Assembly (NCBI RefSeq): GCF_018885265.1
Contig: NZ_CP076538.1
Span: 1,152,001-1,216,000 of the forward strand
Direction of reading: 5' to 3'
Length of the DNA stretch: 64,000 nt
From: Amycolatopsis aidingensis
GTDB lineage: Bacteria > Actinomycetota > Actinomycetes > Mycobacteriales > Pseudonocardiaceae
Shown: positions 2,309 through 19,598 of the stretch, in pieces
Layout: every line of letters starts with the position of its first letter
Position numbering within the stretch: position 1 is the stretch's first letter
Position numbers and translations under genes: made by a program
Notes under the pieces: model-generated
Told to the model about the DNA's origin: nothing
The model's database searches: none
Seen by the model: only the letters and a program-made list of their open reading frames with translations

Positions 2309-2391
2309 TCCCACTCTCGTCCATCGCTGGTGCCGAACCGGTATGCGAGGATCGCTGCCGCCGCCCGCATTCGGCTTGTGAGGAGTACGTG

Positions 2392-3774: not shown

Positions 3775-3847
3775 ATTCAAGGCGCACTCGATTACCCGCT
3801 GCTACGCTGGGGAGAAGCGTTGGATTACTTCACGGAGGATCGTGCCG

Positions 3848-4557: not shown

Positions 4558-5469
4558 GTGACGACGACGTATGAGCTCACGCACCTGGGGATGCTCGAAG
4601 CGGAAGCGGTCCATATCTTCCGGGAGGTCGCCGCGACCTTCGAGAAGCCGGCGTTGCTGTTTTCCGGTGGCAAGGACTCCGTGGTGATGCTGCACCTGGC
4701 TGCCAAGGCGTTCTGGCCGGGACCGTTGCCGTTTCCGGTGATGCACGTGGACACCGGACACAACTTCGACGAGGTGATCGAGTACCGCGATCGCGTCGTC
4801 GCCCGGCACGGCGTCCGGCTGGTGGTCAGCAGCGTGCAGGAGGACATCGACGCGGGCCGGGTCGTGGAGGAGACCGGGCCCCGGGCCAGCCGTAACCGGT
4901 TGCAGACCACAGCACTCCTGCGCGGGATCGCCGAGCACGGCTTCACCGCGGTGTTCGGCGGCGCCCGGCGAGACGAGGAGAAGGCACGGGCGAAGGAGCG
5001 GGTGTTCAGCTTCCGCGACGAGTTCGGCCAGTGGGACCCGCGCAGCCAGCGCCCCGAGCTGTGGAACCTGTTCAACGGAAGGCACCGCAAGGGCGAGCAC
5101 ATCCGGGTGTTCCCGCTGTCCAACTGGACCGAGCTGGACATCTGGCAGTACATCCGGGACGAGCGGATCGAGCTGCCGTCCATCTACTACGCGCACCGCC
5201 GCCCGGTGATCCACCGGGACGGGATGCTGCTGGCGCACACCAGGTTCCTCACCCTGCTGGACGGCGAGGAACCGGCCGAGATGCTGGTCCGCTTCCGCAC
5301 CGTCGGGGACGCGACCTGCACCGGGTGCGTCGAGTCCGGCGCGACGACGCCGGAGGAAGTGGTCGCCGAGATCGCCGCGACCAGGGTCACCGAGCGCGGC
5401 GCGACCCGCGCGGACGACCGGATTTCCGAGGCGGGCATGGAAGACCGCAAGAAGGAGGGTTACTTCTGA
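4558..5469 (+). CDS. cysD: Sulfate adenylyltransferase subunit 2 (CysD)
   Basis: 303 residues starting at GTG 4558. The PP-loop motif [10 protein letters not shown] (about residues 37-46) and the later blocks [15 protein letters not shown] and [15 protein letters not shown] are diagnostic of CysD. With CysN it forms adenosine 5'-phosphosulfate from ATP and sulfate in the cytoplasm. The stop overlaps the start of cysNC by one base, giving a coupled pair. Because the next genes include a PAPS-dependent sulfotransferase at 10916-11836, and no sulfite or cysteine genes accompany it, I infer that this copy supplies PAPS to the cluster rather than serving general sulfur assimilation. Confidence 0.95.
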
Positions 5470-7292
5470 TGGGACCGCTAGTCCGGATAGCCACCGCGGG
5501 CAGTGTCGACGACGGCAAGTCCACGCTGATCGGCAGGTTGCTGTTCGACTCCAAATCCATCCTCACCGACCAGCTGGCCGCCGTGCAGCGGACCAGCGCG
5601 GAACGCAACGAGGAAACCCCGAACCTCGCCCTGCTGACCGACGGCCTGCGGGCGGAACGCGAGCAGGGCATCACCATCGACGTGGCATACCGCTACTTCG
5701 CAACGCCGAGGCGCAAGTTCATCATCGCCGACACCCCCGGCCATCTGCAGTACACCCGCAACATGGTGACCGGGGCCTCCACGGCCGACCTGGCGCTGGT
5801 ACTGGTGGACGCGCGCAAGGGCGTGCTGGAGCAGTCCCGGCGGCACGCGTTCCTCTCCTCCCTGCTCGGGCTGACCCATCTCGTGGTGTGCGTGAACAAG
5901 ATGGATCTCGTGGACTGGTCGCGGGAGCGGTTCGAGGAGATCCGCGAGGAGTTCCGCCGGTTCGCGATGAAGCTGGAGATACCCGACCTCACCTTCATCC
6001 CGATGTCCGCCCTGCACGGGGACAACGTGGTGAACCCCAGCGCGGAGATGCCGTGGTACGAGGGCACCTCGCTGCTGCAGCATCTGGAGCAGGTGCACGT
6101 CGCCTCCGACCAGAACCTGATCGACGTCCGGCTGCCGGTGCAGTACGTGATCCGGGCGGGCCAGGACTTCCGGGGGTACGCCGGCACGATGTCCGGCGGG
6201 GTGCTGAAGCGCGGGGACGAGGTCGCGGTGCTGCCTGCCGGGTTCAGCTCGCGGGTCAGCGCCATCTGGGGGCCCGGTGGCTCGGTGGTCGAGGAGGCCT
6301 TCCCGCCCCAGGCGGTGACCGTCGAACTGGCCGACCATGTGGACGTGGGCCGGGGCGACCTGATCTGCAGGCCGGGCAACCGCCCGCACACCGGGCAGGA
6401 CATCGACGCCATGGTGTGCTGGCTGACCGAGCAGTCCACGCTGACCCCGGGAGCCAAGTACACCGTGCAGCACACCTCCCGCCAGGTCCGGGGCTCGGTG
6501 CGCGAGCTGGACTACCGGCTGGACATCAACACCCTGCACCGGGACGAGTCGGCAGGCGCACTCGGGCTGAACGAGATCGGCCGCATCCGGCTGCGCACCC
6601 AGGCGCCGCTGCTGTTCGACCCCTACCGGCGCAACCGCGGCACCGGCTCGTTCGTGCTGATCGACGAGGCCACGAACAACACGGTGGCGGCCGGGATGAT
6701 CATCGGTCCGCGCGCGACGCACGCGAACGTGGCCTGGCACGCCACCGCGGTGACCAGGGAGCAGCGCGCGACCAGGGGGCTGACGCTCTGGCTGACCGGG
6801 CTTTCCGGCTCCGGTAAGTCGACCGTCGCGGTGGAACTGGAGCGGCGGCTGGTCGCCTCCGGCCGCCCCGCCTACCTGCTGGACGGGGACAACCTCCGGC
6901 ACGGCCTGAACGCCGATCTCGGTTTCGATCCCGCCGACCGGGCGGAGAACGTGCGCCGGGTCGGCGCGGTGGCGCAGTTGTTCGCCGACGCGGGCAATAT
7001 CGCGATCGTTTCGCTGATCAGTCCCTACGCCGCGGACCGCGACAAGGTCCGCGCCGCACACGAAGCGGCCGGACTGTCCTTTGTAGAAGTCCATGTGGAC
7101 ACCCCGCTCGCGGTCTGCGCGGCCCGCGATCCCAAGGGGTTGTACGCGAAGGCACGGGCGGGGGAGATCCGGGGCCTCACCGGGGTGGACGCGCCGTACC
7201 AGGCGCCGGTCCGTCCTGAGCTGGTGCTGCGGCACTCCGCGGGCGATCCGGCGGCACTGGCCGCAACCGTGCTGGCTTACCTCGATGAGTGA
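5469..7292 (+). CDS. cysNC: Bifunctional sulfate adenylyltransferase subunit 1 / adenylylsulfate kinase (CysN-CysC fusion)
   Basis: 607 residues. Residues 1-430 are the CysN GTPase with P-loop [15 protein letters not shown], switch motif [12 protein letters not shown] and NKMD. Residues from about 435 to the end are APS kinase with P-loop [12 protein letters not shown] and the downstream [15 protein letters not shown] block. The fusion (NodQ-like) makes PAPS, the sulfuryl donor for sulfotransferases, in one complex with CysD. Start ATG 5469 shares a base with the cysD stop. The LysR gene follows 23 bp later. A CysNC fusion beside an isolated sulfotransferase and without cysH or cysI supports a dedicated secondary-metabolic role (inference). 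Confidence 0.95.
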
Positions 7293-7315: not shown

Positions 7316-8188
7316 ATGTATCACGACTTGCAGATCAACCGGCTCAGAGCCCTGGTGACCGTGGTCGACCTCGGCGGTTTCCGCAGGGCGGCGGAGGCGC
7401 TGCATGTCACGCAGCCCGCGGTCAGCCAGCAGATCCGGCAGCTTGGCAGCCTCATCAAGGGCCCGATCTTCCTTTCCACTGGGCGCGAGCTACAGCTGAG
7501 CTCCCGGGGCGAGGAACTGCTCGGCTACGCCCGGCGCATCGTCGCGTTGAACGACGAGGCGGTGGACCGGTTCGTGCCGCCTGCCGGGACGATCCGGCTG
7601 TCCCTCGGGGTCGGTGACCAGCTGGCCGAGACTCTTCCGGACATCCTCGCCCTGCTGGCGAAGGGCATACCGAACGCGCAGGTCAGCGTGCGTACCGGGA
7701 TGAGCGAGTCGCTGGAGGCCCAGGTGGCTGCCGGCCGGCTCGATCTGGCGCTGCTGTTGCAGCCCCGCTCGCAGCTGGCCGCCACGATGAACCACGAGCT
7801 CGGCCGGATGCGGATGGACTGGTTCGGCGAACCTGCCTACGGCGAGGGGGCCGAGCTGCCGCTGACCCTGTTCACCGAACCGTGCTCGCTGCGCAGCCAC
7901 ATCCTGGAGACCTTCGACGCCTCCGAACTGCCGTGGCGGGTCGGGTACGAGGGCGCCGAGCTGGTGGGCCTGCGCGCGGCGACCAAGGCGGGCCTTGGGG
8001 TGACCTGCCTGGTGGCCAACAGCGACGAACTCTGGGGACTGCCCCGCACGCGACTCGAGCTGCCCGAACCACCGGGGCCGCTGCCGGTGACCATGGCGTT
8101 GTCGGCAGGCGCCTCCGCGCCGGGTTTCGTCCGGGTCGCCAAGCGGGCCCTGCAGAACGCCCTGCACGGCTACCCCTTCGCCGACTGA
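7316..8188 (+). CDS. LysR family transcriptional regulator
   Basis: 290 residues from ATG 7316, preceded by GGAGG at 7304-7308. An N-terminal LysR helix-turn-helix is plain (LRALVTVVDLGGFRRAAEAL, then HVTQPAVSQQIRQLG), followed by a periplasmic-binding-like effector domain (from about residue 95, IRLSLGVGDQL). It lies 23 bp behind cysNC on the same strand and is probably cotranscribed. It may sense sulfate status or a pathway intermediate and control cysD or the divergent AmCP and encapsulin promoters; this is inference. A long palindromic terminator separates it from the convergent kinase-hydrolase gene. Confidence 0.9.
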   Translation: MYHDLQINRLRALVTVVDLGGFRRAAEALHVTQPAVSQQIRQLGSLIKGPIFLSTGRELQLSSRGEELLGYARRIVALNDEAVDRFVPPAGTIRLSLGVGDQLAETLPDILALLAKGIPNAQVSVRTGMSESLEAQVAAGRLDLALLLQPRSQLAATMNHELGRMRMDWFGEPAYGEGAELPLTLFTEPCSLRSHILETFDASELPWRVGYEGAELVGLRAATKAGLGVTCLVANSDELWGLPRTRLELPEPPGPLPVTMALSAGASAPGFVRVAKRALQNALHGYPFAD

Positions 8189-8249: not shown

Positions 8250-10124
8250 TCAGGCCGCGGAGGCGGGTGCCACCTGGGCGGCCCACTGCGCCACGGCCGC
8301 GGCCAGCACGGTGCGCGCGGTGCGGAACTCCGCGGCCGGGAGGTGTTCGTCCGGGGTGTGGTCCAGCCCGGCGTCCCCCGGGCCGTAGGCGATCATCGGC
8401 ACCTCCCGCCAGGTGGTGGCCAGCGTGTTCATGTCGCTGCTGCCCTTCTTGGCGAGGAACCGCGGGGTCACGCCCGCCTCCCGGAAGGCCCGGGAGAACG
8501 CCCGCACCAGCGGGCTGGTCCGCGCGGTCGCGTGTCCCGGGGTAGCGCGCAGCACCTCCACCCGCGCCGGTGCGGCCGCGCGGGTCACCACCGCGGCCAG
8601 CTCGTGCACATCGGTCGAATGCGGGACGCGTACGTCCAGCACCGCCTCGCCGATCTGCTCGTCTCCGCCGTTGCGCGCGTCCATGCCGAGTACCGCCGGC
8701 ATCGCGTCCTGGCTGGCCGCCGCGATCTCCGCGCGCAGCCGGTGCACCACGTCCACCAGCTGGTCGGCCGCGGTGGACACGCCGTTGCCCGCGGTGTGCC
8801 CCACCGGAGTGCGGACCGAGAGCCGGACCTTGAGCAGGCCGTTGTAGCTGATGGTCAACGCCCCCGCACCGGAGGGCTCGCCGATGATCACGGCATCGGC
8901 CGGGTAGTTGTCCCTTGCGAAGAACGCGCCAGCCGCGGTCATCTCCTCCTCCACCGCGCCGACCACGCGCACCTGCGCCCATGGCGGCACCTCCAGCTCC
9001 GCCAGCGTCTCCAGGAAGGTGACCAGGCTGCCCTTGGCGTCCACGCAGCCGCGGCCGGAGAGCGTGTCCCCGTCCCAGCGCGCGGGCCACCGGTGCGGCA
9101 CGGTGTCCAGGTGGCCCAGCATGAGCAACCGCTGGGGCCCATCGCCCCGCGTGGCCACCAGGTTGCCTGCGAGGTCGATCTCGGCGTCGATCCCGTACTC
9201 GGTGCACCAGTCCACCAGGTAGTCGGCGAGTTCCCGCTCGTCCCCGGACACCGAGGAGATCTCCACCGAGCGGGAAAGCAGCTGTACATCCGGTGCGGGT
9301 GGCGCGGCCCGCCAGAAGCGGGTTCCCGAGGCCGGGGCCAGCACATGCGGACCGGTGATCGCGACATCGGCGGCGCCGGTGAGCGCGATCTCCGCGGCCC
9401 GCACCTTGTGCCGCATCCGTCCCCGCGCGTATCGCGCGCCCTCCCCTGCGAGCAGGTGGGCCTGCCGGGAGGTGACATCGGCCGGATCGGCCAGCAGGCC
9501 GGGGGTGCCGGTGACCAGCCGCAGGTGGTCGGCGTCCAGCGCGTTCGCCAGCTCCGCGGCCAGCACGTCGGCGTCCACGTTCAGTGCCGAACCACCCGCG
9601 GCGCAGGCCACCGGGGGCGATACGCACACCACGTCGAAGGCATCCAGCAGCGCGTGCAGCCTGCTGGTATCCACATCGGACACCAGGCCGGCGCGGTGGT
9701 CGCGGACCAGCAGGGTCCGGCCGTCCCGCACCGCACGCAGCGGCGGGTTGGCCGTGCCGCAGACCAGCTCGCCCTCGGCGGCCACCGCGGTGTAGGAGCT
9801 GAGCCCGCGTGCGGCCAGCGCACGGCGCACCCGTGGCAGCGTGACCCGCTCGTAGGCGGAGACGATGTAGGGCATCTCCTCCGGCGGGCAGTAGCGGATC
9901 TCGTCGCCACCGCGCAGTTGCAGGGTGCGCATCGTGCGGCCGATCTCGGCGTAGTGCTCGGCGATCCCGGCCGCGCCACCCGCGACCAGCAGCACCCGCG
10001 CGCCGCGCTGGTAGATGGCGGCCAGCTCGTCGAACACGTTGTCGTGTTTCAGCGAGGCACTGCCGATCTTGACCACGTACAACGCCGCCCCGCGGGTGCT
10101 GGCGACATGCCCGAGTAAGGACAT
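8250..10124 (-). CDS. lysZ-lysK: Fused LysZ-like amino acid kinase and LysK-like M20 hydrolase of the amino-group carrier pathway
   Basis: 624 residues with two catalytic modules. Residues 1-265 resemble LysZ/ArgB amino acid kinases: VVKIG at 17-21, the NVDADVLAAELANALDADHL block at 182-201 and a C-terminal MRHKVRAAEIALTGAADV segment. Residues 285-624 are an M20 metallopeptidase like LysK/ArgE: GHLDTVP at 337-343, GRGCVDAKGSL with Asp362, VEEEMTAAGA with Glu392/Glu393, and a C-terminal His in GLDHTP. In carrier pathways LysZ phosphorylates the side-chain carboxylate of the LysW-bound amino acid and LysK cuts the finished amino acid from LysW. Having the second and last steps on one chain is unusual. 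The kinase glycine loop is divergent (VAGGAAGI instead of HGGG). Ends 13 bp before the SDR start region; reverse-strand operon with the SDR, sulfotransferase and encapsulin. Confidence 0.85.
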   Translation of the reverse strand: MSLLGHVASTRGAALYVVKIGSASLKHDNVFDELAAIYQRGARVLLVAGGAAGIAEHYAEIGRTMRTLQLRGGDEIRYCPPEEMPYIVSAYERVTLPRVRRALAARGLSSYTAVAAEGELVCGTANPPLRAVRDGRTLLVRDHRAGLVSDVDTSRLHALLDAFDVVCVSPPVACAAGGSALNVDADVLAAELANALDADHLRLVTGTPGLLADPADVTSRQAHLLAGEGARYARGRMRHKVRAAEIALTGAADVAITGPHVLAPASGTRFWRAAPPAPDVQLLSRSVEISSVSGDERELADYLVDWCTEYGIDAEIDLAGNLVATRGDGPQRLLMLGHLDTVPHRWPARWDGDTLSGRGCVDAKGSLVTFLETLAELEVPPWAQVRVVGAVEEEMTAAGAFFARDNYPADAVIIGEPSGAGALTISYNGLLKVRLSVRTPVGHTAGNGVSTAADQLVDVVHRLRAEIAAASQDAMPAVLGMDARNGGDEQIGEAVLDVRVPHSTDVHELAAVVTRAAAPARVEVLRATPGHATARTSPLVRAFSRAFREAGVTPRFLAKKGSSDMNTLATTWREVPMIAYGPGDAGLDHTPDEHLPAAEFRTARTVLAAAVAQWAAQVAPASAA

Positions 10125-10136
10125 TTTTCCTCCTGT

Positions 10137-10907
10137 TCAGCCGATACCACGGGTGTTGCCGCCGTCGGCGAGGAAGACCGTGCCGGTGACGTAGGCGGCC
10201 TGTTCACTGGCGAGGAACGTGGCCAGCGCGCCGAAGTCCGCGCAGTCCCCGATCCGTCCGAGCGGCAGCCGGTCGGCCACCTTGGCGAGTTCCTCATCCA
10301 CGGCCGCGCCGAACTGCTCGTCCAGGATCGGCGTGCGGTGGAATCCGGGCGCGAGCACGTTCACCGTGACCCCGTTCGGGCCAAGGGCGTGCACCAGGCC
10401 CTTCATGTGCCCGAGCAGGCCCAGCCTGGCCACGGAGGACAGCCCGCTCTCCGGGTGCGGCTGGCGGATCGACTCGGAGGCGATCATCAGCATCCGGCCC
10501 CAGCCGCGGGACTTCAGCAACGGCGTGGCCGCGAGGGTGATCGCCACATGTGGCAGCAGGTTCGCGTCGATCGCCTCGCGGTAGTCGGCGACCGTGAAGC
10601 TGTCGATCGGCCCGAACGGGACCCCGCCGCTGTTGGTCACCACGACGTCCAGCTCCCCGAAGGTCTCCGCGGTCTGCTGCACCCACGCGGCGGCCGCGTT
10701 CTCGTCCCGGATGTCCACGGCGACGCTGAGCACGTCGCCCGGCCCCACCGCGTTCACCTCTGCATGCGCCCTGGCCAGCCGGAGCTGGTCCCGGCCGCAG
10801 ATCGAGACATGCGCGCCTTCGGCCGCGAAGGCCTTGGCCGTGGCCAGGCCGAGTCCGCTGCTCGACGCGGCGACCAGTGCCACACGATCCTTCAGTCCGA
10901 GTTCCAT
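10137..10907 (-). CDS. Short-chain dehydrogenase/reductase with a degenerate active site
   Basis: 256 residues. Start ATG 10907 is set by an AGGAGAG box just upstream and by the N-terminal strand preceding the nucleotide loop ASSSGLGLATAKAF (residues about 14-27). The central TNSGG and the C-terminal APGFHRTPI blocks are SDR hallmarks. The usual catalytic YxxxK is absent: by alignment on the helix that follows, the position reads SSVAR, so Tyr becomes Ser and Lys becomes Arg. A Ser remains in IASES. SDRs with this pattern exist as a subgroup, so it may still act as a reductase, epimerase or isomerase. It sits between lysZ-lysK and the sulfotransferase, so its substrate is probably the transketolase-derived keto amino acid (inference). 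Confidence 0.8.
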   Translation of the reverse strand: MELGLKDRVALVAASSSGLGLATAKAFAAEGAHVSICGRDQLRLARAHAEVNAVGPGDVLSVAVDIRDENAAAAWVQQTAETFGELDVVVTNSGGVPFGPIDSFTVADYREAIDANLLPHVAITLAATPLLKSRGWGRMLMIASESIRQPHPESGLSSVARLGLLGHMKGLVHALGPNGVTVNVLAPGFHRTPILDEQFGAAVDEELAKVADRLPLGRIGDCADFGALATFLASEQAAYVTGTVFLADGGNTRGIG

Positions 10908-10915
10908 TACCTCTC

Positions 10916-11836
10916 CTAGGCGTTCGGCAGGAGCCGATACCCGTAGCGCGCGAGCATCGGCAGGGCGGTCATGGTCGCGGCGGCGATCCGCGGTGCGGGC
11001 AGTTGCGTGCGCCAGCGCTCGTCCGGGCTGATCCGGGTGTCTCCCTTGGCCAGCCGGTCGGGGTTGCCGGTGACGGTGTGGTTCTCCCCGAGCCGGACCA
11101 GCCCGGAATCCGCCACCGGCGGATCGTCGTCCAGTCCGGCGAACCGCAGCACCTCGGTGAGCACCTCCCGCGGCGCGCGGCACAGGTCCTCGTGCCGGAT
11201 GCGCAGGTAGCGCTCGGGTGCCGCCCGCCCGATCAGTTCCGAGGCCAGGTTGAAGGCTGTCCAGTAACCGCTGCTGCGGCTCGGGCTCATCGGGTCGATG
11301 TAGTCCTTCGCCCTTGCGTAGGACAGTGCGGTCGCGCGGGCGTCCCGCACCATGTGCAGCACGCGGACGTCCAGATCGGAGCGACCGAGCAGGGCCGCGG
11401 CCTCGGCGGGGTACTTCGAGCCGTCCACGATCAGGCGCTGCGCGCTCTGCGCGGCGAGCAGCCGGTAGATCTCGGCGGTGCGCCCGATGGCCTCGTCCAC
11501 CTCCGGTGGCCGTGCGGCCTTGCCGAGCGACTCGGCCAGCCGCCTTCTGGTGTGCCGGGTGCGCAGCAGGGCCCGTTGCTGGCCGACCATGGCCCGCGCC
11601 GCGCCCGGCTCCGCCGTGCCGTTGGCCGCCAGGATCGCCGACCAGATCTCACAGTCGTTCAGGTCCCGGCCGCAGCCGCAGGTGGAGTTGGTGCCAAGGT
11701 GCAGCACACCGTTGCGCCACAGGTAGTGCAGCTCGCCGACGTGCAGCACGCCCGGCAGCTCCCCGAGAATGTTGCCGAGCAGGGTGCTGCCGCTGCGCAT
11801 CCAGCCGGTGATGTAGAGGACGCGGGGCCGGTTCAT
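10916..11836 (-). CDS. PAPS-dependent sulfotransferase
   Basis: 306 residues. The 5'-phosphosulfate-binding loop is at the N-terminus (YITGWMRSGSTLLGNILGE, residues about 8-26) and the 3'-phosphate-binding segment is VLHMVRDARATALSYAR in the middle. Both are standard for cytosolic/sulfotransferase family 1-3 enzymes, which transfer sulfate from PAPS to a hydroxyl. A four-cysteine patch (CGCGRDLNDCEIW plus neighbours, residues about 58-70) is unusual and could bind metal or form disulfides. The stop is 8 bp before the SDR start and its own start overlaps the encapsulin stop by 4 bp (ATGA). With cysD-cysNC nearby this is likely the step that turns a hydroxyl of the carrier-bound amino acid into a leaving group. 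Confidence 0.9.
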   Translation of the reverse strand: MNRPRVLYITGWMRSGSTLLGNILGELPGVLHVGELHYLWRNGVLHLGTNSTCGCGRDLNDCEIWSAILAANGTAEPGAARAMVGQQRALLRTRHTRRRLAESLGKAARPPEVDEAIGRTAEIYRLLAAQSAQRLIVDGSKYPAEAAALLGRSDLDVRVLHMVRDARATALSYARAKDYIDPMSPSRSSGYWTAFNLASELIGRAAPERYLRIRHEDLCRAPREVLTEVLRFAGLDDDPPVADSGLVRLGENHTVTGNPDRLAKGDTRISPDERWRTQLPAPRIAAATMTALPMLARYGYRLLPNA

Positions 11837-12693
11837 CGCCCGGCCGCCCAGGACAGGGTCATCAGGTGCTGCGGAAGGTGCACCGCGAGCCCGATGCGGG
11901 TGCAGGCCTCCAGCCGATCGCCCTCCGTGCCGGAGCGCAGCGCGATATGCGCGACATTCGGCAGCAGCAGGGTGAACGCCGCGCGGAAGTCGCCGAGCAA
12001 CAGCCGGTCCCGCGCGATCATCCGGGTGCGGGACACGGTGATGCCCGCGACCTGTAGCCGCTCCAGCAGGCCGGTACGCACCATCTCCCAGTAGGTGAAC
12101 GGGTGCGCCACGATGCCGTCGCAGGATCCGCCGGTCTCCTCGACCTCGGCGGCCGCCTCGGTCACCGCGGCCTCCAGTCCGAGCTGGGATCCGGTGTGCC
12201 GGGTGCCGGGCAGGTTCAGCAGCCCGGTGATCGCGCCGTCCGCGGTGCCGTGCAGCAGCGACTGGTTCTCCACCACCGAAAGCCGCACCAGCAACCGGAA
12301 ATCGATGTACTGGGTGAGCAGTTCCGGCCAGTCGAGCAGGCCGAAGGGCAGCGGTACGGTTGCCGTGATGTCGGTCAGCTCCGCCTGCTCCAGCCGCGGG
12401 GCGAAGTGGGCCTCCGGGGTGGTCTCGTAGGAGGTACCGGAGGCGCCAAGCGCTCCCTTCGGCGGCTCGTGCACGTAGCAGGCCTCGGTGCCGGTGACCG
12501 GAGCGGTCTTCAGCAGGTGGCGCACGGGGTACCGGGGCCGGGAGGCGAAAAGCGGGAACGCCGCCGGCAGGTGCGTGTGGAACGGCACGACCAGTTCGCG
12601 CCGCGCCCGTGTATCGCGCACGGCGGCGGCGAACTCCTCGCCGGGTGTGCGCTCGACGGACTTGAGTTCGGCCAAGGCCGCGGTTGTTCGCAT
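11833..12693 (-). CDS. HK97-fold shell protein, family 3 (natural-product) encapsulin
   Basis: 286 residues. The sequence has the pattern of an HK97-type capsid protein: an N-terminal arm, an extended loop region (about 60-110), a P-domain helix with YIDFRLLVRLSVVENQSLL then a glycine-rich turn and GLLNLPG (about 130-165), an A-domain strand IVAHPFTYWEMV (about 200-211) and a C-terminal strand set with DRLLLGDFRAAFTLLLPN and VAHIALRSG. Length fits encapsulins (about 265-290). No terminase, portal, protease or tail gene is near, so it is not a prophage remnant. It is the first gene of a coupled reverse-strand operon with a sulfotransferase, SDR and lysZ-lysK, and faces lysW. From the published encapsulin survey I recall family 3 as embedded in clusters with sulfotransferases, SDRs and amino-group carrier proteins, exactly this set. 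Shell assembly and cargo are inferred. Confidence 0.85.
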   Translation of the reverse strand: MRTTAALAELKSVERTPGEEFAAAVRDTRARRELVVPFHTHLPAAFPLFASRPRYPVRHLLKTAPVTGTEACYVHEPPKGALGASGTSYETTPEAHFAPRLEQAELTDITATVPLPFGLLDWPELLTQYIDFRLLVRLSVVENQSLLHGTADGAITGLLNLPGTRHTGSQLGLEAAVTEAAAEVEETGGSCDGIVAHPFTYWEMVRTGLLERLQVAGITVSRTRMIARDRLLLGDFRAAFTLLLPNVAHIALRSGTEGDRLEACTRIGLAVHLPQHLMTLSWAAGR

Positions 12694-12935: not shown

Positions 12936-13118
12936 ATGCAGAAGATCACGTACGCGGCCGAGTGCCCGGAGTGCGCATCCGAGGTGACCATCGACGCGGA
13001 GGTCCGGGTCAGCGAGATCATCGAGTGCACGGACTGCCGGAGCGAGCTGGAGATCGTCTCGACCGAACCACCGGAGCTCGCGCTGGCTCCCGATGTCGAA
13101 GACGACTGGGGCGAGTAA
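12936..13118 (+). CDS. lysW: Amino-group carrier protein (LysW homologue)
   Basis: 60 residues. Two zinc-binding pairs (CPEC near residue 9 and CTDC near residue 31) make the N-terminal zinc domain, and the protein ends in the diagnostic acidic tail VEDDWGE, whose terminal glutamate side chain carries the substrate's alpha-amino group as an isopeptide. In Thermus this carrier serves lysine and arginine synthesis; in actinomycetes it is used for secondary metabolism. The acidic surface (pI clearly low by composition) is what lets LysX, LysZ, LysY and LysK recognise it. It is the first gene of a seven-gene operon. Actinomycetes make lysine by the diaminopimelate route, so a lysine role is unlikely. 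Confidence 0.97.
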   Translation: MQKITYAAECPECASEVTIDAEVRVSEIIECTDCRSELEIVSTEPPELALAPDVEDDWGE

Positions 13119-13134
13119 CAAAGGACATCATGAC

Positions 13135-13998
13135 ATGGATTCGGTGACCCCTCGTCTCGGCATTCTCGCCTCGCGGGTTCGGTACGAGGAAAAAAACATC
13201 ATGGCCGCGCTGGAGCGACGCGGTGCCGAGTTCGAGTATCTGGATCCTCGGTCATTGTTTGTCGTCGGTGCGGCGCAACGGGAAGCGCCGTCGTTCGTGT
13301 TCAACCGCGAGATCGGGCATTTCCGTGCCTACTATGCGGCCAGCGCGCTGGAAGCGGCGGGGGCGACGGTGCTGAACACCGCCGCCGCCACCCACGTGAC
13401 CGGGGACAAGTGGCACACCTCGGCGGCCCTGCTCGATGCCGGGCTGCCGACACCTGCCACCGCGCTGGCGATGACGCCGGATGCGGCGCTCAAGGCACTG
13501 GAGGAGATCGGCTACCCAGCGGTGATCAAGCCGCTGGTCGGCTCCTGGGGCCGGCTGGTCACCAGGGTGAGTGACCGGGCGATGGCCGCCGCGGTACTGG
13601 AGTACGTCGCGGCGCTGCCTTCCCCGCAGTCGCACGTTGTCTACGTGCAGGAACTGGTGCCCAAGGCCGACAGGGACATCCGCGTGGTCGTGGTGGGCGG
13701 CACCGCGCTCGGCGCGATGCACCGCCGTGGCACGGAATGGCGCACCAACGTGGCGCGGGGTGCGGTGAGCGAGCACTGCCCACTCAGCCCGGCGCACGCC
13801 GAACTGGCGGTGTCCGCTGCCGCCGCGGTCGGCGCCGATATCGCGGGCGTCGATCTCATCGAGGACGAGGAAGGACGTGTCACCGTGCTTGAGGTCAACG
13901 GCCAGGTGGAGTTCCGCGGCTTCCAGGAGGCCGAGGGCTCGAGGGTGGACGTCGCCGACGCCATCGCGTCCCTGCTGATCGCGAGGGCAGCCGCATGA
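13135..13998 (+). CDS. lysX: LysX-type ATP-grasp ligase (charges the carrier with an amino acid)
   Basis: 287 residues from ATG 13135 with an AAAGGA box at 13120. Architecture is that of the RimK/LysX ATP-grasp ligases: N-terminal Rossmann-like part (RLGILASRVRYEEKNIMAAL), central lid with PAVIKPLVGSWGRLVTRVSD, and C-terminal metal/ATP site VDLIEDEEGRVTVLEVNGQVEFRG (about 240-265; shortened here, key residues Asp, Glu and Asn). It joins the alpha-amino group of glutamate or 2-aminoadipate to the terminal glutamate of LysW. In secondary clusters glutamate is the usual substrate. It lies 16 bp behind lysW and overlaps lysY by four bases, so stoichiometric cotranslation is expected. Confidence 0.93.
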   Translation: MDSVTPRLGILASRVRYEEKNIMAALERRGAEFEYLDPRSLFVVGAAQREAPSFVFNREIGHFRAYYAASALEAAGATVLNTAAATHVTGDKWHTSAALLDAGLPTPATALAMTPDAALKALEEIGYPAVIKPLVGSWGRLVTRVSDRAMAAAVLEYVAALPSPQSHVVYVQELVPKADRDIRVVVVGGTALGAMHRRGTEWRTNVARGAVSEHCPLSPAHAELAVSAAAAVGADIAGVDLIEDEEGRVTVLEVNGQVEFRGFQEAEGSRVDVADAIASLLIARAAA

Positions 13999-15020
13999 TC
14001 AGGGTCGCGGTCGTCGGCGCCGCCGGGTACATCGGCGGCGAGCTGTTGCGCATTCTGGTCTCCCACCCCGAGGTGGAGGTCGCGGCGGCCACCTCCCGCT
14101 CCCTGCACGGGCGGCAGATCGACGGGGTGCATCCGAACCTGCGGGGCCGGACCAGGCTGGTGTTCAGCCCGGAGGAGGAGCTCGATCGCTACGACGTGCT
14201 GTTCCTTGCCACCCCGCATCGGGAGACGATGTCCCGGATGCCGGAGTTCCTCGCCATGGCGGACACGGTGATCGACCTTTCCGGGGACTTCCGGCTGCGC
14301 GACCCGGATACCTTCGCGGACTACTACGGGCTGGCACACCAGGCCCCCGAACTGCTCGAGACCTTCGTGACCGGCCTGCCGGAGCTGCACAGGGAACGAC
14401 TGCGCACGGCCGACCGGATCAGCGTGCCGGGATGCATGGCCAGCGCCGGGATGCTGTCGCTGGTGCCGCTGGCCGAGGCCGGCCTGATCACCGGTGAGGT
14501 CGCGGTGGACGCCCGCACGGGCTCCAGCGGCTCGGGCGCGAAGGCCGGGACGGAGAACCTGCACGCCGAGCGCAGCGGCGCCCTGCGGGTGTTCGCGCCG
14601 ACCCGGCACCGGCACGAGGCGGAGATCGCGCAGGCCACCGGGCTGCCGATCCGGATGACCGCCACCGGGATCGAGGCGGTGCGCGGGGTGCAGCTGGTCT
14701 GCCGGGCCTGGCTGGCCGATGGCGTGGACGAGCGGGCCATCCGGTCCACCTACCGCAAGCGGTACGGCGAGGAGCCGTTCGTTCGGGTGGTCGCCCAGCG
14801 GCGCGGCATGCACCGGTTCCCGGACGCGAAGATCCTTTCCGGCTCGAACTTCTGCGATGTCGGGTTCGCGCTTGAGCGGGGCTCGCCGCAGGTCACCGTC
14901 ATCGCCGCGCTGGACAACCTGGTCAAGGGCGGAGCAGGGAACGCGGTGCAGTGCATGAACGTGCGGTTCGGCCGCAACGAGCGGGCCGGGCTCGAGTTCA
15001 CCGGTTTGCACCCGAACTGA
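13995..15020 (+). CDS. lysY: LysY/ArgC-type semialdehyde dehydrogenase acting on the carrier-bound phosphate
   Basis: 341 residues. The N-terminal NADP fold begins VAVVGAAGYIGGELLRIL and the catalytic cysteine is in RISVPGCMASAG (about residue 149), matching N-acetylglutamyl-phosphate reductase and its LysW-dependent relative LysY. It reduces the acyl phosphate made by LysZ to the semialdehyde, giving LysW-gamma-glutamyl-glutamate semialdehyde if glutamate is the substrate. The start overlaps lysX by ATGA. Context (lysW, lysX) rather than sequence alone decides LysY over ArgC; no argJ, argB, argD or argF is near. Confidence 0.92.
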   Translation: MIRVAVVGAAGYIGGELLRILVSHPEVEVAAATSRSLHGRQIDGVHPNLRGRTRLVFSPEEELDRYDVLFLATPHRETMSRMPEFLAMADTVIDLSGDFRLRDPDTFADYYGLAHQAPELLETFVTGLPELHRERLRTADRISVPGCMASAGMLSLVPLAEAGLITGEVAVDARTGSSGSGAKAGTENLHAERSGALRVFAPTRHRHEAEIAQATGLPIRMTATGIEAVRGVQLVCRAWLADGVDERAIRSTYRKRYGEEPFVRVVAQRRGMHRFPDAKILSGSNFCDVGFALERGSPQVTVIAALDNLVKGGAGNAVQCMNVRFGRNERAGLEFTGLHPN

Positions 15021-15042: not shown

Positions 15043-15909
15043 ATGAGCAGCATGTTCACGCTGCCGAGCAGTCCACCGGGCAGTCCGCACCTCGAACTGG
15101 CCCCGATCACGCACCGGATCCGCGAGCACATCGTCAACATGTGCGCGGGTCCGGAGGGCGGCCACGTTGGCGGCTCGATGTCCCTGGTCGAGATCCTGGC
15201 GACCCTGTACTTCCGGGTGATGTTCGTCGATCCGCGTTTCCCCGGCCTTCCCGAGCGGGACATCCTGCTGCTCAGTAAGGGACATGGCGGGATAGGGCTG
15301 TACGCGACCCTGTGCGAGGCCGGCTTCTTCCCCGAGCGCGAGCTGGCCGACTACGGGCGAGAGGGCAGCCATTTCATGGCTCACCCACATCCCGAGGTGC
15401 CCGGGGTGGAAATGCCGTCCGGTTCCCTCGGGCACGGCCTCGCCATCGGGATCGGCTGCGCGCTCGCGGCCAGGCTGGAGCAGGCCCCGCGCCGCACCTT
15501 CGTGGTCCTCGGCGACGGCGAGTTGCAGGAAGGTTCGGTGTGGGAGGCCGCCGCGGTCGCCGCCAGCCAGCGGCTGGACGGGCTGGTCGCCATCGTCGAC
15601 CGCAACCGGCTGCAGATCACCGGCGAGACCGACGAGGTGTGCAACCTGGAACCGCTGGCTGACCGGTGGCGTGCCTTCGGCTGGCGGGTGCACGAGGTGG
15701 ACGGGCACGACGTGGACGAGCTGACCGAGGTGCTGACCGCGCCACCGGATCCGGGCACGCCGACCGTGCTCATCGCGCACACCGTGAAGGGGAAGGGCCT
15801 GCCCTTCGTGGAGGGCCAGCCGCGCAGCCACTACGCCCGGCTGGGCGAGCGGCAGCACCGCCAGGCGCTTGCCGCGCTGCGCGCCTCGGTACGGAAGGCA
15901 CGCCGATGA
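15043..15909 (+). CDS. Transketolase, N-terminal (thiamine diphosphate-binding) subunit
   Basis: 288 residues. The thiamine diphosphate motif begins at VVLGDGELQEGSVWEAAAVA and ends with VDRNRLQ; the early HVGGSMSLVEIL and LSKGHGGIGLYATL blocks are typical of split transketolases. It pairs with the next gene, which supplies the other half. In azinomycin/vazabitide-type carrier pathways a split transketolase adds a two-carbon hydroxyacetyl unit to the glutamate semialdehyde on LysW, giving a C7 hydroxy-keto amino acid. Location directly after lysY makes the same role very likely here. Stop and next start overlap by four bases. Confidence 0.93.
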   Translation: MSSMFTLPSSPPGSPHLELAPITHRIREHIVNMCAGPEGGHVGGSMSLVEILATLYFRVMFVDPRFPGLPERDILLLSKGHGGIGLYATLCEAGFFPERELADYGREGSHFMAHPHPEVPGVEMPSGSLGHGLAIGIGCALAARLEQAPRRTFVVLGDGELQEGSVWEAAAVAASQRLDGLVAIVDRNRLQITGETDEVCNLEPLADRWRAFGWRVHEVDGHDVDELTEVLTAPPDPGTPTVLIAHTVKGKGLPFVEGQPRSHYARLGERQHRQALAALRASVRKARR

Positions 15910-16853
15910 CGACCCCGGCCAGCGCACCGCCGTCCTCGCGGGACGTGTACCGCGACATCGTCACCGAACTGCTGCCAGCCGACCAGCGACTGGTCTGCCT
16001 GGACAGCGACACCGGCCTGTTCAACGGGGTCGACTGGGGTACCGCGGCCGACCGCTACCTGAACATCGGGATCGCCGAGCACACCCTGATGGGGGCCGCG
16101 GCCGGCCTTGCCAAGCAGGGGCGGGTCCCCTTCGTGAACACCATGGCCGCCTTCGCGGCGTCCCGCGCGGTGGAGGCCGTCAAGATCGATATCGCGCTGA
16201 GCAACCTGCCGGTGCGCATCGCGGCGACCCACTCCGGGGTGTCCGCGGGCCATCTCGGCCCCACGCATCACGCGCTGGAGGACCTGGCCGCGATGCGCGC
16301 CCTGCCGAACATGACCGTCGTGGTCCCTGCCGACGCCGCCTCGGCCGATGAGCTGATCCGGCAGGCGATGGCGCTGCCGGGGCCGGTGTACCTGCGGCTC
16401 GGCCGAGGCGCCACCCCCGACCTGCCGGCGGGGCCGCCGATCGAGCTCGGCAGGGCACAGGTGCTGCGCGAGGGCGCCGACATCACGCTGGCCGCCTGCG
16501 GGGCGTACCCGGTGCTGGCCGCGCTGGAGGCCGCGGAACTGCTCGGCCGGGACGGGATCGAGGCCGGGGTACTGCATGTGCACACGGTCAAGCCGCTGGA
16601 CACGCCCGCGCTGGCGGCCGCGGCCAGCCGGACCGGCACCGTGGTCACCGTCGAGGAGCACTGGCATGCGGGTGGTTTCGGCGCGGCGGTCGCGGAAAGC
16701 CTCACCGGGCTGCTGCCGGTGCTGGTGCACAGGGTGGCGATGCCGGACGCGTTCGTGCCCGTCTCCGGCGGGCAACGATACCTGCTCGAACAGGCCGGCA
16801 TCACCGGCGCGGCCGTGGCCGATCGTGCCCGGCTGGCCCTGGACAAGGCATGA
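15906..16853 (+). CDS. Transketolase, C-terminal subunit
   Basis: 315 residues from ATG 15906. It holds the pyrimidine-binding domain (DRYLNIGIAEHTLMGAAAGL with the glutamate that activates the thiamine ring; then RIAATHSGVSAGHLGPTHHALEDLA, here given by its key residues His and Glu) and the C-terminal transketolase domain (VTVEEHWHAGGFGAAVAE). The two subunits together equal one classical transketolase. Overlap with the first subunit (ATGA) and with the next gene region suggests tight coupling. Product inferred: LysW-bound 2-amino-5,7-dihydroxy-6-oxoheptanoate. Confidence 0.93.
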   Translation: MTTPASAPPSSRDVYRDIVTELLPADQRLVCLDSDTGLFNGVDWGTAADRYLNIGIAEHTLMGAAAGLAKQGRVPFVNTMAAFAASRAVEAVKIDIALSNLPVRIAATHSGVSAGHLGPTHHALEDLAAMRALPNMTVVVPADAASADELIRQAMALPGPVYLRLGRGATPDLPAGPPIELGRAQVLREGADITLAACGAYPVLAALEAAELLGRDGIEAGVLHVHTVKPLDTPALAAAASRTGTVVTVEEHWHAGGFGAAVAESLTGLLPVLVHRVAMPDAFVPVSGGQRYLLEQAGITGAAVADRARLALDKA

Positions 16854-16864: not shown

Positions 16865-18475
16865 ATGAACGACGCCTATCGCGCCGCGGGCTGGTGGCGG
16901 GACGAGACCATCATGGACGATCTGCGGCGCGCGGCCGCGGCGACCCCGGACAAACCCGCGCTGGTGTGCTACCAGAACGGAACCGTGGCTGTGGTGTCCT
17001 ATGTAGACCTGCTGGCCAGGGTGGACCGGCTGGCGGCCAACCTGGTGCGGCTGGGAGTGCGGCCGGGTGAGGTCGTCACCCTGCAACTGCCGAACTCCTG
17101 GCAGTTCGTCGCGCTCTGCCTCGCCTGCGCGCGGATCGGCGCGATCGCCGGGCCTGCCGTGCCGATCCTGCGCCGCAGGGAGATCGAGCACATGACCAGG
17201 CTCACCGAGAGCCGGGTGTACATCGCGGCGGCCGAGTTCCGGGGTTTCGACTACGCCGAGATGAGCGCTCAGGTCGCGGCGGCGGTGCCGACGCTGGAAC
17301 ACCGGGTGCTGCTCGGCGGCGGACCAGGAGCACTGGACTTCGACCGGGACCTGCTGGAGCACGAGCCGCCACCGGTGGACCTCGACGCGCTGGAGGCCGC
17401 TCCCGACGACGCGGCCCAGGTCATGTTCACCTCCGGCACCACCGGCGAGCCGAAGGGTGTGCTGCACAGTCACAACACCCTGTACGCGATGAACAAGGCC
17501 CAGGCCGAGGTGCTGCACCTGGGGCCGGACGAGGTGACCGCGATGGGCTCACCGACCTCGCATCAGGCGGGCTACACCTGGAACTTCGTGATGCCCCTGC
17601 TGCTCGGCGCCACGGCGGTGCAGGTGGAGTCCTGGGACCCGCGGGCCATGCTGCGCATCCTGGAGGAGCGGCGGGTCACCTTCTTCATGGGCGCGCCCAC
17701 CTTCCTCGCCGACCTGATCGCGGCGCAGCGGGAGGACCCGCGTGACCTCGGCGCGCTGCACACCTTCGCCACCGGCAGCGCGCCGATCGCGCCGACCTTC
17801 GTGGAGCAGGCCCGCGACGTACTCGGCTGCCGGCTGTACGCGCTGTGGGGGATGACCGAGAACGGCTGCGTGACCATCACCCGGCCCGAGGACCCGCCGC
17901 TGCGCGCCGCCGAGAGCGACGGCACCGCCGTGCCCGGCATGGAGGTCCGCATCCGGCCAGGGGGCAACCTGCAGGTACGCGGCGCGGCGCAGTGCCTCGG
18001 CTACTTCCGGCGCGCGCGGGTGTACGCGAGCTCGCTGACCGAGGACGGCTGGTTCGACACCGGCGACCTGGCAAGGGACGACGGCCACGGCGGTATCCGG
18101 ATCACCGGGCGGGTCAAGGACCTGATCATCCGCGGGGCGGAGAACATCCCGGCGGTGGAGGTGGAGGCCGCGCTGGTGCGGCATGCCGCGATCAAGGACG
18201 TTGCCGTGGTGGGCTACCCGGACCAGCGCCTCGGCGAACGCGCCTGCGCGGTGCTGGTGACCACCGGCGAACCGCTCAGCCTTGACGACCTGCGCACTCA
18301 CCTGGACGGGCTGGGCATGGTCAAGCAGTACTGGCCCGAGCGGGTGGAGATCGTGCCCGAACTGCCGAGGACCCCCTCGGGAAAGATCCGGAAAACCGTG
18401 CTGCGCGACCGGCTTCGGGAGGGTTGCGCGCAGCCGCGTAAAGGGAGAGAAGATGGACTTCGAGTACACGGCTGA
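16865..18475 (+). CDS. Acyl-CoA synthetase / AMP-dependent ligase
   Basis: 536 residues. AMP-binding signature MFTSGTTGEPKGVL (about 183-196), A5-like YALWGMTENGC, the hinge TGRVKDLIIRGAENI and the C-terminal catalytic lysine in TPSGKIRKTVL. The overall type resembles cyclohexanecarboxylate-CoA ligases. ATG 16865 is preferred because AAGGGA lies at 16853-16858; an in-frame start at 16850 overlapping the transketolase stop is possible. The gene ends inside the start region of the acyl-CoA dehydrogenase (23-bp overlap), so the two probably act on the same acyl group. Whether this is a carboxylic starter or the new amino acid itself cannot be seen. Confidence 0.85.
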   Translation: MNDAYRAAGWWRDETIMDDLRRAAAATPDKPALVCYQNGTVAVVSYVDLLARVDRLAANLVRLGVRPGEVVTLQLPNSWQFVALCLACARIGAIAGPAVPILRRREIEHMTRLTESRVYIAAAEFRGFDYAEMSAQVAAAVPTLEHRVLLGGGPGALDFDRDLLEHEPPPVDLDALEAAPDDAAQVMFTSGTTGEPKGVLHSHNTLYAMNKAQAEVLHLGPDEVTAMGSPTSHQAGYTWNFVMPLLLGATAVQVESWDPRAMLRILEERRVTFFMGAPTFLADLIAAQREDPRDLGALHTFATGSAPIAPTFVEQARDVLGCRLYALWGMTENGCVTITRPEDPPLRAAESDGTAVPGMEVRIRPGGNLQVRGAAQCLGYFRRARVYASSLTEDGWFDTGDLARDDGHGGIRITGRVKDLIIRGAENIPAVEVEAALVRHAAIKDVAVVGYPDQRLGERACAVLVTTGEPLSLDDLRTHLDGLGMVKQYWPERVEIVPELPRTPSGKIRKTVLRDRLREGCAQPRKGREDGLRVHG

Positions 18476-19598
18476 GCAGCAGGCGCTGGCCAAACGGGTC
18501 GGCGAGTTCGCGGCCGAGCACATCGCCCCGTACCGCAAGGAGAACGACGCGCGGGGCAGCTACCGGCCTGGCCTGCTTCCCGAGCTGGCCGCCGCAGGCC
18601 TGTTCGGCCTGCGCGTCCCCGCGGCCTATGGCGGCCTCGAGCTGGACGCGGCGAGTGCGGGCATCGCGCTGGAGGAGCTGGCAGCCGCGGACCTGACGGT
18701 GTGCTTCCCGGTGCTGAACGCGGCACTGGTGGCCGGGGTGCTGGCAGGCAATGGCACGCCGGAGCAACTGTCCGGCTGGCTGCCGCCGATCGCGAGCGGT
18801 ACGGCGATCGTCGCGGTCTGCCTGACCGAGGCCGAGCACGGCACCGACGCCGCGGGGATCCAGATGCGCGCCACCCCGGAAGGGGACGGCTGGGTACTGA
18901 ACGGCGAGAAGACCTCCATCATGTCCACCGCCTACGCCACGCATGCCCTGGTCTTCGCGCGCACCGGTGGCCAGGGGGCACACGGCATCACGGCGTTCTA
19001 TGTGGACCTCGACTCGCCGGCGGTGAGCCGGGAGCGTCTGAGCGACCTCGGCTGCCGGGCCGGCGGCAGGGGCAGGCTGGTGTTCGATGGGCTGCGGGTG
19101 GGCCCCGAGGCCGTGGTCGGCAAGCCGGGTGCCGGGTTCGTCGAGGTGATGCGCGGGTTCGCCTTCTCGCGGGCGCTGATCGCGCTGATGGCGATCGCGG
19201 TCGGCAACGCGGCGATCGAAGAGGCCATCGCGCATGCCGGCAGCAGGGAGGCCTTCGGCCAGCCGATCGGCCGTTACCAGTCGGTCTCGTTCCCGCTGGT
19301 CGAGTACGCGACCCTGCTGCGCGGGGCGCGGCTGCTCGCCTACGAAGCCCTGTGCAAGGCCGACAACGGGCTGGACCCGCGCATTCCGTCCAATATGGCC
19401 AAATGGTGGGCACCGAAGGTGGCGATGGAGGCCGTGCACCAGGCCCTGCTGACCCTGGGTCATCTCGGCTGGTCCGAGGACGGGCCGATCGCCCAGCGGC
19501 TGCGGGACGTGATCGGGCTCCAGCTCGCGGACGGCACCGCGGGGGCGACCAAGCTCGTGGTCGCCAGGCACCTGCTGGGTAAGGAGAACGCGCCCTAG
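18453..19598 (+). CDS. Acyl-CoA dehydrogenase
   Basis: 381 residues from ATG 18453 with an AAGGGAGAGA box just before. The FAD-binding middle domain is clear (VCLTEAEHGTDAAG, later GWVLNGEKTSIMS) and the C-terminal helical domain has REAFGQPIGRYQSVSFPLVE. The catalytic base region is MEAVHQALLTLGHLGWSEDG. Acyl-CoA dehydrogenases in natural-product clusters desaturate or oxidise carrier- or CoA-bound acids. The 23-bp overlap with the ligase suggests that it desaturates the CoA ester made by it. Last gene of the lysW operon; its stop overlaps that of the convergent CGNR gene. Confidence 0.88.
   Translation: MDFEYTAEQQALAKRVGEFAAEHIAPYRKENDARGSYRPGLLPELAAAGLFGLRVPAAYGGLELDAASAGIALEELAAADLTVCFPVLNAALVAGVLAGNGTPEQLSGWLPPIASGTAIVAVCLTEAEHGTDAAGIQMRATPEGDGWVLNGEKTSIMSTAYATHALVFARTGGQGAHGITAFYVDLDSPAVSRERLSDLGCRAGGRGRLVFDGLRVGPEAVVGKPGAGFVEVMRGFAFSRALIALMAIAVGNAAIEEAIAHAGSREAFGQPIGRYQSVSFPLVEYATLLRGARLLAYEALCKADNGLDPRIPSNMAKWWAPKVAMEAVHQALLTLGHLGWSEDGPIAQRLRDVIGLQLADGTAGATKLVVARHLLGKENAP

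What the first reader, a model, noticed from the sequence alone, without database searches (positions are those of the whole stretch)
8250..12693. Natural-product encapsulin coupled to a sulfotransferase, an SDR and a carrier-protein hydrolase
An HK97-fold shell protein with no phage genes around it starts a reverse-strand operon whose next genes (sulfotransferase overlapping it by four bases, SDR, lysZ-lysK) act on an amino-group carrier pathway encoded divergently. From the published encapsulin survey I recall family 3 encapsulins in clusters with sulfotransferases, SDRs and amino-group carrier proteins. This looks like a full example. A shell could retain an unstable sulfated or strained intermediate, or enclose LysW-loaded substrates. 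The cargo and the reaction enclosed are, to my knowledge, not established.
Basis: partly seen in the sequence, partly recalled or inferred. Interest (0 to 1): 0.95.

Follow-up and report, generated by a model that had tools for sequence, protein, structure and literature searches.

The report
Encapsulin shell wedded to a sulfotransferase
An actinobacterium carries a virus-derived protein shell of a known but unexplained family inside a small-molecule gene cluster, and comparison with 60 related loci shows that the shell's constant partner there is a sulfate-adding enzyme rather than the carrier-protein pathway beside it, which narrows the search for what the shell does.

Summary
ORF 11833-12693(-) has an HK97 fold and passes NCBI's family 3 encapsulin model at 343.8 bits against a cut-off of 180. 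It overlaps a sulfotransferase with intact motifs by 4 bases, and an SDR and a fused LysZ-LysK follow. LysW, LysX, LysY and a split transketolase are divergent. I found no phage context. NCBI already names close homologues, so this is a new member of a known kind.

The comparison adds more. In 61 shell loci, all from Actinomycetota, the sulfotransferase is present in 61; the LysX cassette is in 35, and 24 carry one of three other precursor gene sets. In 394 sampled genomes of the class, the 8 with a shell (this genome included) are the 8 with the closest sulfotransferases. LysW-type shell clusters lack the aminotransferase and the AziU3/AziU2 pair of the azinomycin pathway.

My best explanation: the shell serves the sulfation step. 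Sulfate is added to a seven-carbon amino-polyol, probably as a leaving group, and the shell confines that step. Assembly, cargo and product are inferred. I saw no conserved targeting peptide on the sulfotransferase, SDR or LysZ-LysK. Enclosing LysW-loaded substrates is not supported as a general role.

The parts
11833..12693 (-). family 3 encapsulin shell protein, 286 aa
   Evidence: NF041188 343.8 bits, cut-off 180; HK97 fold
10916..11836 (-). PAPS-dependent sulfotransferase, 306 aa, start overlaps shell stop by 4 bases; constant partner of the shell in the loci examined
   Evidence: PF13469 3e-11; R14, G16, T18, R164, D165, R167, S172 invariant in 59 of 59 aligned; 61 of 61 shell loci
10137..10907 (-). 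short-chain dehydrogenase/reductase, 256 aa
   Evidence: PF13561 2.4e-43; 56 of 61 shell loci
8250..10124 (-). fused LysZ (amino acid kinase) - LysK (M20 LysW-hydrolase-like), 624 aa
12936..13118 (+). LysW-like amino-group carrier protein, 60 aa
   Evidence: TIGR01206 50.6 bits, cut-off 53.2
13093..13998 (+). LysX-like ATP-grasp ligase (an internal start is possible)
   Evidence: TIGR02144 249.5 bits, cut-off 275.6; RimK family TIGR00768 239.2, cut-off 143.4
13995..15020 (+). LysY/ArgC-like acyl-phosphate reductase
   Evidence: TIGR01850 348 bits, cut-off 233.6
15043..15909 (+). split transketolase, N-terminal half
   Evidence: NF004559 262 bits over model positions 18-281 (cut-off 488 is for the whole enzyme)
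15906..16853 (+). split transketolase, C-terminal half
   Evidence: PF02779 and PF02780
16865..18475 (+). CoA ligase, best model cyclohexanecarboxylate-CoA ligase (below cut-off)
   Evidence: TIGR03208 527.7 bits, cut-off 792; relative in 46 of 61 shell loci
18453..19598 (+). acyl-CoA dehydrogenase, best model cyclohexanecarboxyl-CoA dehydrogenase (below cut-off)
   Evidence: TIGR03207 335.8 bits, cut-off 575; relative in 41 of 61 shell loci
4558..5469 (+). CysD-like sulfate adenylyltransferase small subunit (PAPS supply)
   Evidence: PF01507 3e-46 (CysD reading from its CysN-CysC partner); relative within 11 kb of the shell in 33 of 61 loci
5469..7292 (+). CysN-CysC fusion (GTPase subunit plus APS kinase; PAPS supply)
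   Evidence: PF01583 2e-66, PF00009 4e-42
7316..8188 (+). LysR-type regulator
   Evidence: PF00126 and PF03466; relative within 11 kb of the shell in 14 of 37 type A loci, window included

Best explanation
This is a family 3 encapsulin system whose functional core is shell plus sulfotransferase, usually with the SDR. In this cluster the LysW, LysX, LysY, LysZ and transketolase genes would build, on the carrier, a C7 chain: 2-amino-5,7-dihydroxy-6-oxoheptanoate. No aminotransferase follows, so after LysK releases the amine the ketone can close to a six-membered cyclic imine. The SDR would reduce this to 5-hydroxy-6-(hydroxymethyl)pipecolate, and the CoA ligase and acyl-CoA dehydrogenase would act on the ring acid. 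The sulfotransferase, fed by the cluster's own CysD and CysN-C, sulfates a hydroxyl next to the amine, and the sulfate is a leaving group for displacement (aziridinium, aziridine or halide). The shell assembles around or docks the sulfotransferase and keeps this alkylating intermediate from the cytosol. Shown: gene identities, predicted HK97 fold, intact sulfotransferase motifs, constant shell-sulfotransferase pairing in the actinobacterial loci examined, exchange of precursor pathways, absence of the aminotransferase and AziU3/AziU2 matches. Inferred: shell assembly, sulfotransferase as cargo, C7 pipecolate substrate, leaving-group role.
For: Sulfotransferase beside the shell in 61 of 61 loci across four precursor types; SDR in 56 of 61. 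In 394 class genomes the 8 with a shell, this one included, are the 8 with the top-scoring sulfotransferases (218.9 bits or more; next best 172.5), 0-3 kb apart. Precursor type changes 6 times on the shell tree and 4 on the sulfotransferase tree by parsimony while the pair stays. PAPS motifs invariant in 59 of 59 aligned. By sequence the nearest solved relatives are the olefin synthase and CurM sulfotransferases, described as activating (PMC3903477 passages). 1,2-Aminosulfates close to aziridines in AziU3/U2 chemistry (PMC12559475 passages). AziU3, AziU2 and azinomycin-type sulfotransferase not detected in 61 of 61 shell loci; DegT aminotransferase not detected in 37 of 37 type A loci. C7 convergence: type A 5+2; type B aspartokinase plus ADH-synthase-like aldolase, whose GriI relative joins C4 and C3 (PMC8697445 passages). 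The one experimentally studied family 3 cluster makes a 6-chloromethyl-5-methoxypipecolic acid peptide, a C7 ring acid (PMC8346489 section 9). Ligase and dehydrogenase resemble cyclohexanecarboxylate enzymes.
Confidence: 0.4

Rival explanations
1. The sulfotransferase is the shell's partner, but sulfation is decoration: the SDR makes a hydroxyl, the sulfotransferase sulfates it, and the final product carries a stable sulfate. This is the reading offered in the 2021 survey.
For: Survey text (PMC8346489 section 9); SDR in 56 of 61 loci; by fold the sulfotransferase is as close to tyrosylprotein sulfotransferases as to the activating ones.
Against: By sequence the nearest solved relatives are activating sulfotransferases. 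The sister AmCP-transketolase pathway uses sulfate as a leaving group (PMC9570651 passages; PMC12559475 passages). The chloromyxamide building block is named without a sulfate.
Confidence: 0.27
2. The shell encloses an earlier step: the SDR or other enzymes handling a reactive aldehyde or ketone, or LysW-loaded substrates.
For: The survey proposes sequestered aldehydes or ketones and notes disordered termini on many tailoring enzymes of such clusters; LysX lies within 11 kb in 35 of 61 loci and SDR in 56 of 61.
Against: LysX is absent near 26 of 61 shells, and 17 of 20 searched genomes of that kind have no strong LysX match anywhere. Type D (3 loci) has no shell-type SDR. The precursor genes are exchanged while shell and sulfotransferase stay.
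Confidence: 0.13
3. The HK97-fold protein does not act as an enzyme container: it takes the place of AziU3/AziU2 as the post-sulfation partner, or acts as a sink or sheath for self-protection, perhaps as a smaller oligomer.
For: Shell and AziU3/AziU2 were never found together: 0 of 61 shell loci have AziU3 or AziU2, and 3 of 9 shell-free LysX loci do. No cargo peptide was seen.
Against: The fold elements of an assembling capsid (N-arm, E-loop, spine helix, A-domain) appear to be present in the model (domain labels from general knowledge of the fold). The exclusivity could be mere lineage splitting, and 6 of the 9 shell-free loci show no AziU3/AziU2 within their 20 kb either.
Confidence: 0.1
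4. A decaying prophage capsid gene that happens to sit by a gene cluster.
For: Closest folds are phage HK97 heads.
Against: No Phage_portal in the genome, no phage or viral-contig relative at the sensitivity used, 251 homologues, many named family 3 encapsulin, constant sulfotransferase pairing.
Confidence: 0.01

Closest known systems
Family 3 (natural product) encapsulins, Andreas and Giessen 2021 (PMC8346489), NCBIfam NF041188
   Same: Sequence family, HK97 fold, location in a biosynthetic cluster, sulfotransferase, SDR and AmCP neighbours
   Different: Nothing found in this member departs from the family. The survey's main text calls sulfotransferases commonly found; here they are in 61 of 61 actinobacterial loci, which is a statement about the family and not about this member. 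Its supplementary figures S8-S12 were not seen.
Azinomycin/vazabitide amino-group carrier pathway with AziU3/AziU2
   Same: LysW, LysX, LysY, LysZ, LysK and split transketolase; a sulfotransferase; CysD and CysN- or CysC-like genes in the shell-free loci L086 and L087
   Different: No aminotransferase, AziU3/AziU2 or azinomycin-type sulfotransferase match in the window; LysZ-LysK fused; a shell, a different sulfotransferase subfamily and an SDR instead
Activating sulfotransferases of olefin synthase (4gox) and CurM (4gbm)
   Different: Stand-alone enzyme, not a polyketide synthase domain with a thioesterase; substrate unknown; tyrosylprotein sulfotransferases score as well by fold
GriI/BagB/FevI-type ADH-synthase-like aldolases (type B shell loci, not this window)
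   Same: Aldolase family (NF005556 301 bits, cut-off 241) whose member GriI joins C4 and C3 units (PMC8697445 passages)
   Different: 3 of 5 searched type B genomes have no GriH-like DHQS (PF01959), so the chain is unlikely to be aromatised that way there

Membership tests
Family 3 encapsulin | passes the curated sequence model NF041188 | tested here: met
   343.8 bits, cut-off 180
Family 3 encapsulin | HK97 fold | tested here: met
Family 3 encapsulin | embedded in a biosynthetic cluster, no phage structural genes | tested here: met
   no phage family among the 40 of 56 called window genes scanned with Pfam, no Phage_portal in the genome, no structural PHROG among 10 window proteins
Family 3 encapsulin | self-assembly into an icosahedral shell | not testable with these tools
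   needs expression and electron microscopy
Family 3 encapsulin | dedicated cargo loading | tested here: inconclusive
   no conserved terminal peptide seen on sulfotransferase, SDR or LysZ-LysK; termini of the other cluster proteins were not inspected
Azinomycin/vazabitide-type aziridine pathway | LysW carrier cassette plus split transketolase | tested here: met
Azinomycin/vazabitide-type aziridine pathway | aminotransferase giving the diamino acid | tested here: not met
   no DegT match at 1e-10 in the 64-kb window; no aminotransferase Pfam hit in 40 of 56 called window genes
Azinomycin/vazabitide-type aziridine pathway | AziU3/AziU2 pair | tested here: not met
   no tblastn match at 1e-10 in the window; the L086 queries were verified against PDB AziU3/AziU2
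Activating (OLS/CurM-type) sulfotransferase | sequence and fold relation | tested here: inconclusive
   best by sequence but tied with tyrosylprotein sulfotransferases by fold
Activating (OLS/CurM-type) sulfotransferase | sulfate is lost in the next step | not testable with these tools
   needs enzyme assay
Prophage capsid remnant | other phage structural genes nearby or sequence relatives in phages | tested here: not met

The most novel reading that the evidence does not exclude
Family 3 encapsulins are dedicated compartments for sulfation-activated alkylating chemistry. Shell plus sulfotransferase replaces the AziU3/AziU2 aziridine synthase as a portable module that has been joined several times (4 to 6 changes by parsimony) to different precursor routes, at least two of which (types A and B, 43 of 61 loci) lead by gene content to a C7 2-amino-6-oxo acid that could close to a 6-(activated methyl)pipecolate. 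The shell confines an aziridinium or nitrogen-mustard-like intermediate, and chloromyxamide's chloromethylpipecolate would be the halide-trapped product of the same logic.
Probability: 0.2. Interest if true: 0.9.

Novelty: new member of a known kind. Interest (0 to 1): 0.6.

Why it matters
The survey that defined family 3 encapsulins says their role is unknown and offers only hypotheses. Finding that one enzyme, the sulfotransferase, accompanies the shell in all 61 actinobacterial loci examined, while the precursor pathways come and go, turns an open question into a short experiment: is the sulfotransferase inside, and what happens to its product without the shell? If the leaving-group reading is right, bacteria use a virus-derived shell to handle an alkylating intermediate, and clusters with family 3 shells become predictable sources of alkylating natural products.

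Tried and rejected
1. Terminal targeting peptides. I looked at all C-termini of 55 sulfotransferases and at every fourth row of the sulfotransferase, SDR and LysZ-LysK alignments with the column conservation of their last 60 columns. Four Streptomyces sulfotransferases (L022, L023, L024, L027) end in a low-complexity tail closing with a WPGE-like motif, which looked like a cargo tag. The DNA there is CCGGGTGA(G/A), a ribosome-binding-site-like sequence just before the overlapping GTG start of the SDR gene, so I reject it as evidence. The WTSD endings in L037 and L047 likewise overlap the SDR start. The window's sulfotransferase has no such tail, and its model has no segment under pLDDT 50.

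2. LysW loading as the general role. Three of the 20 do have a strong LysX elsewhere in the genome.

3. Aromatisation of the type B chain by a GriH-like enzyme. 2 of 5 type B genomes hold PF01959, on contigs numbered C5 that I take to differ from the shell contigs, though contig numbering is not proof; 3 of 5 hold none (L049 not included).

4. Direct look at the chloromyxamide cluster of Myxococcus. Not possible: the single genome-contig scan returned only records with actinobacterial titles. The 2018 chloromyxamide paper was not looked up; I saw it only in reference lists. PMC10435759 passages did not describe the pathway.

5. Rows dropped. The tally included L003, a 3.8-kb fragment; I dropped it, and the same genome is represented by L099. 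L030 and L043 were counted as type A on LysZ-LysK alone. In one search weak matches were excluded by identity floors (SDR 40%, CoA ligase 38%, LysX 30%), which removes a 31% SDR in L068 and a 27% LysX in L061.

6. Limits of the genome samples. In some searches only the best 5 or 6 candidates per genome were scored. In one search, 53 further genomes of the 394 hold a more distant sulfotransferase (172.5 bits or less) without a shell. In one search, 10 of 396 genomes match the shell model only below its cut-off; I did not check whether these are phage capsids.

7. Literature searches listed no paper in the held library on the function of family 3 encapsulins beyond PMC8346489, or on sulfotransferase as their cargo; only listed rows were seen. 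Supplements could not be read.

8. The trees were built without checking branch support, and the mirror-tree correlation (r 0.80, n 59) shows co-inheritance; I do not use the correlation as evidence of contact.
Full report

THE CLUSTER. Minus strand: shell, sulfotransferase (4-base overlap), SDR, fused LysZ-LysK. Plus strand: LysW, LysX, LysY, transketolase N and C halves, a CoA ligase and an acyl-CoA dehydrogenase. Upstream on the plus strand: a CysD-like protein and a CysN-CysC fusion, which would supply the sulfotransferase's donor PAPS, and a LysR regulator. Of 56 genes called in the window, 40 were scanned with Pfam and none is an aminotransferase; 5 more were scanned with NCBIfam or PHROGs only and 11 with nothing. 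No DegT, AziU3 or AziU2 match at 1e-10 exists anywhere in the 64 kb.

RELATED LOCI. One scan of GTDB contigs with a 30-sequence alignment returned 56 shell loci, all with actinobacterial titles. This set is biased to near relatives. An evenly drawn sample of 394 genomes of the class gave 8 with a shell at E <= 1e-15, this genome included, in 8 of 138 genera. Four of these are only about 30% identical and were fetched as L096-L099. In a 396-genome phylum sample only 2 genomes, this one included, passed the curated cut-off and 10 more matched below it, so the family is rare.

THE CONSTANT PARTNER. With the window that makes 61 distinct shell loci (three further fetched loci, L084, L085 and L089, duplicate others and were dropped). 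A relative of the window's sulfotransferase lies within 11 kb of the shell in 61 of 61; the SDR in 56 of 61 (missing in the three type D loci, in L064, and in L067, which is cut by the contig end); LysX in 35; transketolase N half in 34; the CoA ligase in 46; the acyl-CoA dehydrogenase in 41; CysD in 33. In the class sample the 8 highest-scoring sulfotransferase matches (218.9 to 681.8 bits) are in exactly the 8 shell genomes, 0-3 kb from the shell; the next best, 172.5 bits, has no shell, and 53 genomes in all hold only such more distant relatives. The cut between 218.9 and 172.5 was drawn after seeing the scores; for that cut the chance of the overlap is 7e-17, ignoring relatedness. Sulfotransferase residues R14, G16, T18 and R164, D165, R167, S172 (the two PAPS-binding motifs; motif names recalled) are invariant in 59 of 59 aligned sequences (L059 and L070 were missing from the gene calls and are not in the alignment).

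CHANGING PRECURSORS. Each locus falls into one of four types. A (37): LysW/LysX and split transketolase (35 with LysX, 2 with LysZ-LysK only). B (6): aspartokinase plus a DhnA/ADH-synthase-like aldolase. C (15): DegT aminotransferase. D (3): transaldolase-like protein plus a saccharopine-dehydrogenase-like protein. By parsimony the type changes 6 times on the shell tree (n 61) and 4 times on the sulfotransferase tree (n 59) (branch support not checked). Of 20 searched genomes whose shell locus lacks LysX, 3 have a strong LysX match elsewhere and 17 none. So the shell goes with the sulfotransferase, not with the carrier pathway.

COMPARISON WITH AZINOMYCIN-TYPE PATHWAYS. In the class sample 13 of 394 genomes carry LysX at 1e-40. 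Four are shell genomes. In the fetched 20 kb the other nine loci show neither shell nor shell-type sulfotransferase nor shell-type SDR. Instead 6 of 9 have a DegT aminotransferase, 5 of 9 an azinomycin-type sulfotransferase and 3 of 9 AziU3 and AziU2; those of L086 were verified against the solved AziU3 and AziU2 (E 1.5e-70 and 7.4e-52). Genes beyond the 20 kb could be missed. None of these genes was found in the 37 type A shell loci. Between the shell operon and the LysW/transketolase genes no unassigned gene remains in 32 of 34 type A loci examined (the two exceptions, L057 and L070, hold a transporter and a separate LysK, and a transketolase gene, judged by eye). In azinomycin biosynthesis the transketolase product is aminated, then sulfated, and the sulfate is displaced to form the aziridine (PMC9570651 passages; PMC12559475 passages).

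VERDICT. Observation confirmed; family assignment firm by sequence model and predicted fold. New member of a known kind. What seems new, as far as the held literature shows (searches; supplements of the survey not seen), is the strict pairing of shell and sulfotransferase, the exchange of precursor pathways and the mutual exclusion with AziU3/AziU2.

Noticed in passing
window 20617-35967 (+): A chorismate-derived aromatic cassette next to the shell cluster: amidohydrolase, 2,3-dihydro-DHB-type dehydrogenase (341 bits, cut-off 300), isochorismatase, anthranilate-synthase-like protein with fused glutaminase, BagE/FevW-like ligase (573 bits, cut-off 800), O-methyltransferase, KSIII-like protein, DAHP synthase, stand-alone adenylation-PCP. 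The set recalls benzoxazole or 3-hydroxyanthranilate pathways (recalled). Whether it belongs to the shell pathway is open.
   Followed up: partly
window 39057-41505 (+): A TOMM-type YcaO maturase (TIGR03604 265.6 bits, cut-off 219) with a small upstream ORF holding FCYC. YcaO relatives lie 7-9 kb from the shell in 7 of the 56 scanned loci, 4 of them with called peptides of a TCICW-type core, so a ribosomal peptide may be part of some shell clusters.
   Followed up: partly
window 1247-4270 (+): Saccharopine-dehydrogenase-like protein, nitrosuccinate-lyase/pcaB-like lyase (560 bits, cut-off 650, for the former; 364, cut-off 356, for the latter) and a 140-aa protein with no family hit in Pfam, NCBIfam or PHROGs. 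30-31% relatives of the first lie beside the three type D shells.
   Followed up: no
L022, L023, L024, L027 sulfotransferase C-termini: A WPGE-like C-terminal peptide that mimics a cargo tag but is encoded by a ribosome-binding-site-like sequence of the overlapping SDR gene; a trap for searches of terminal peptides in overlapping operons.
   Followed up: yes
L087, L088 and L090-L093 are further shell-free LysX loci of uncertain product.
   Followed up: partly
   Followed up: partly
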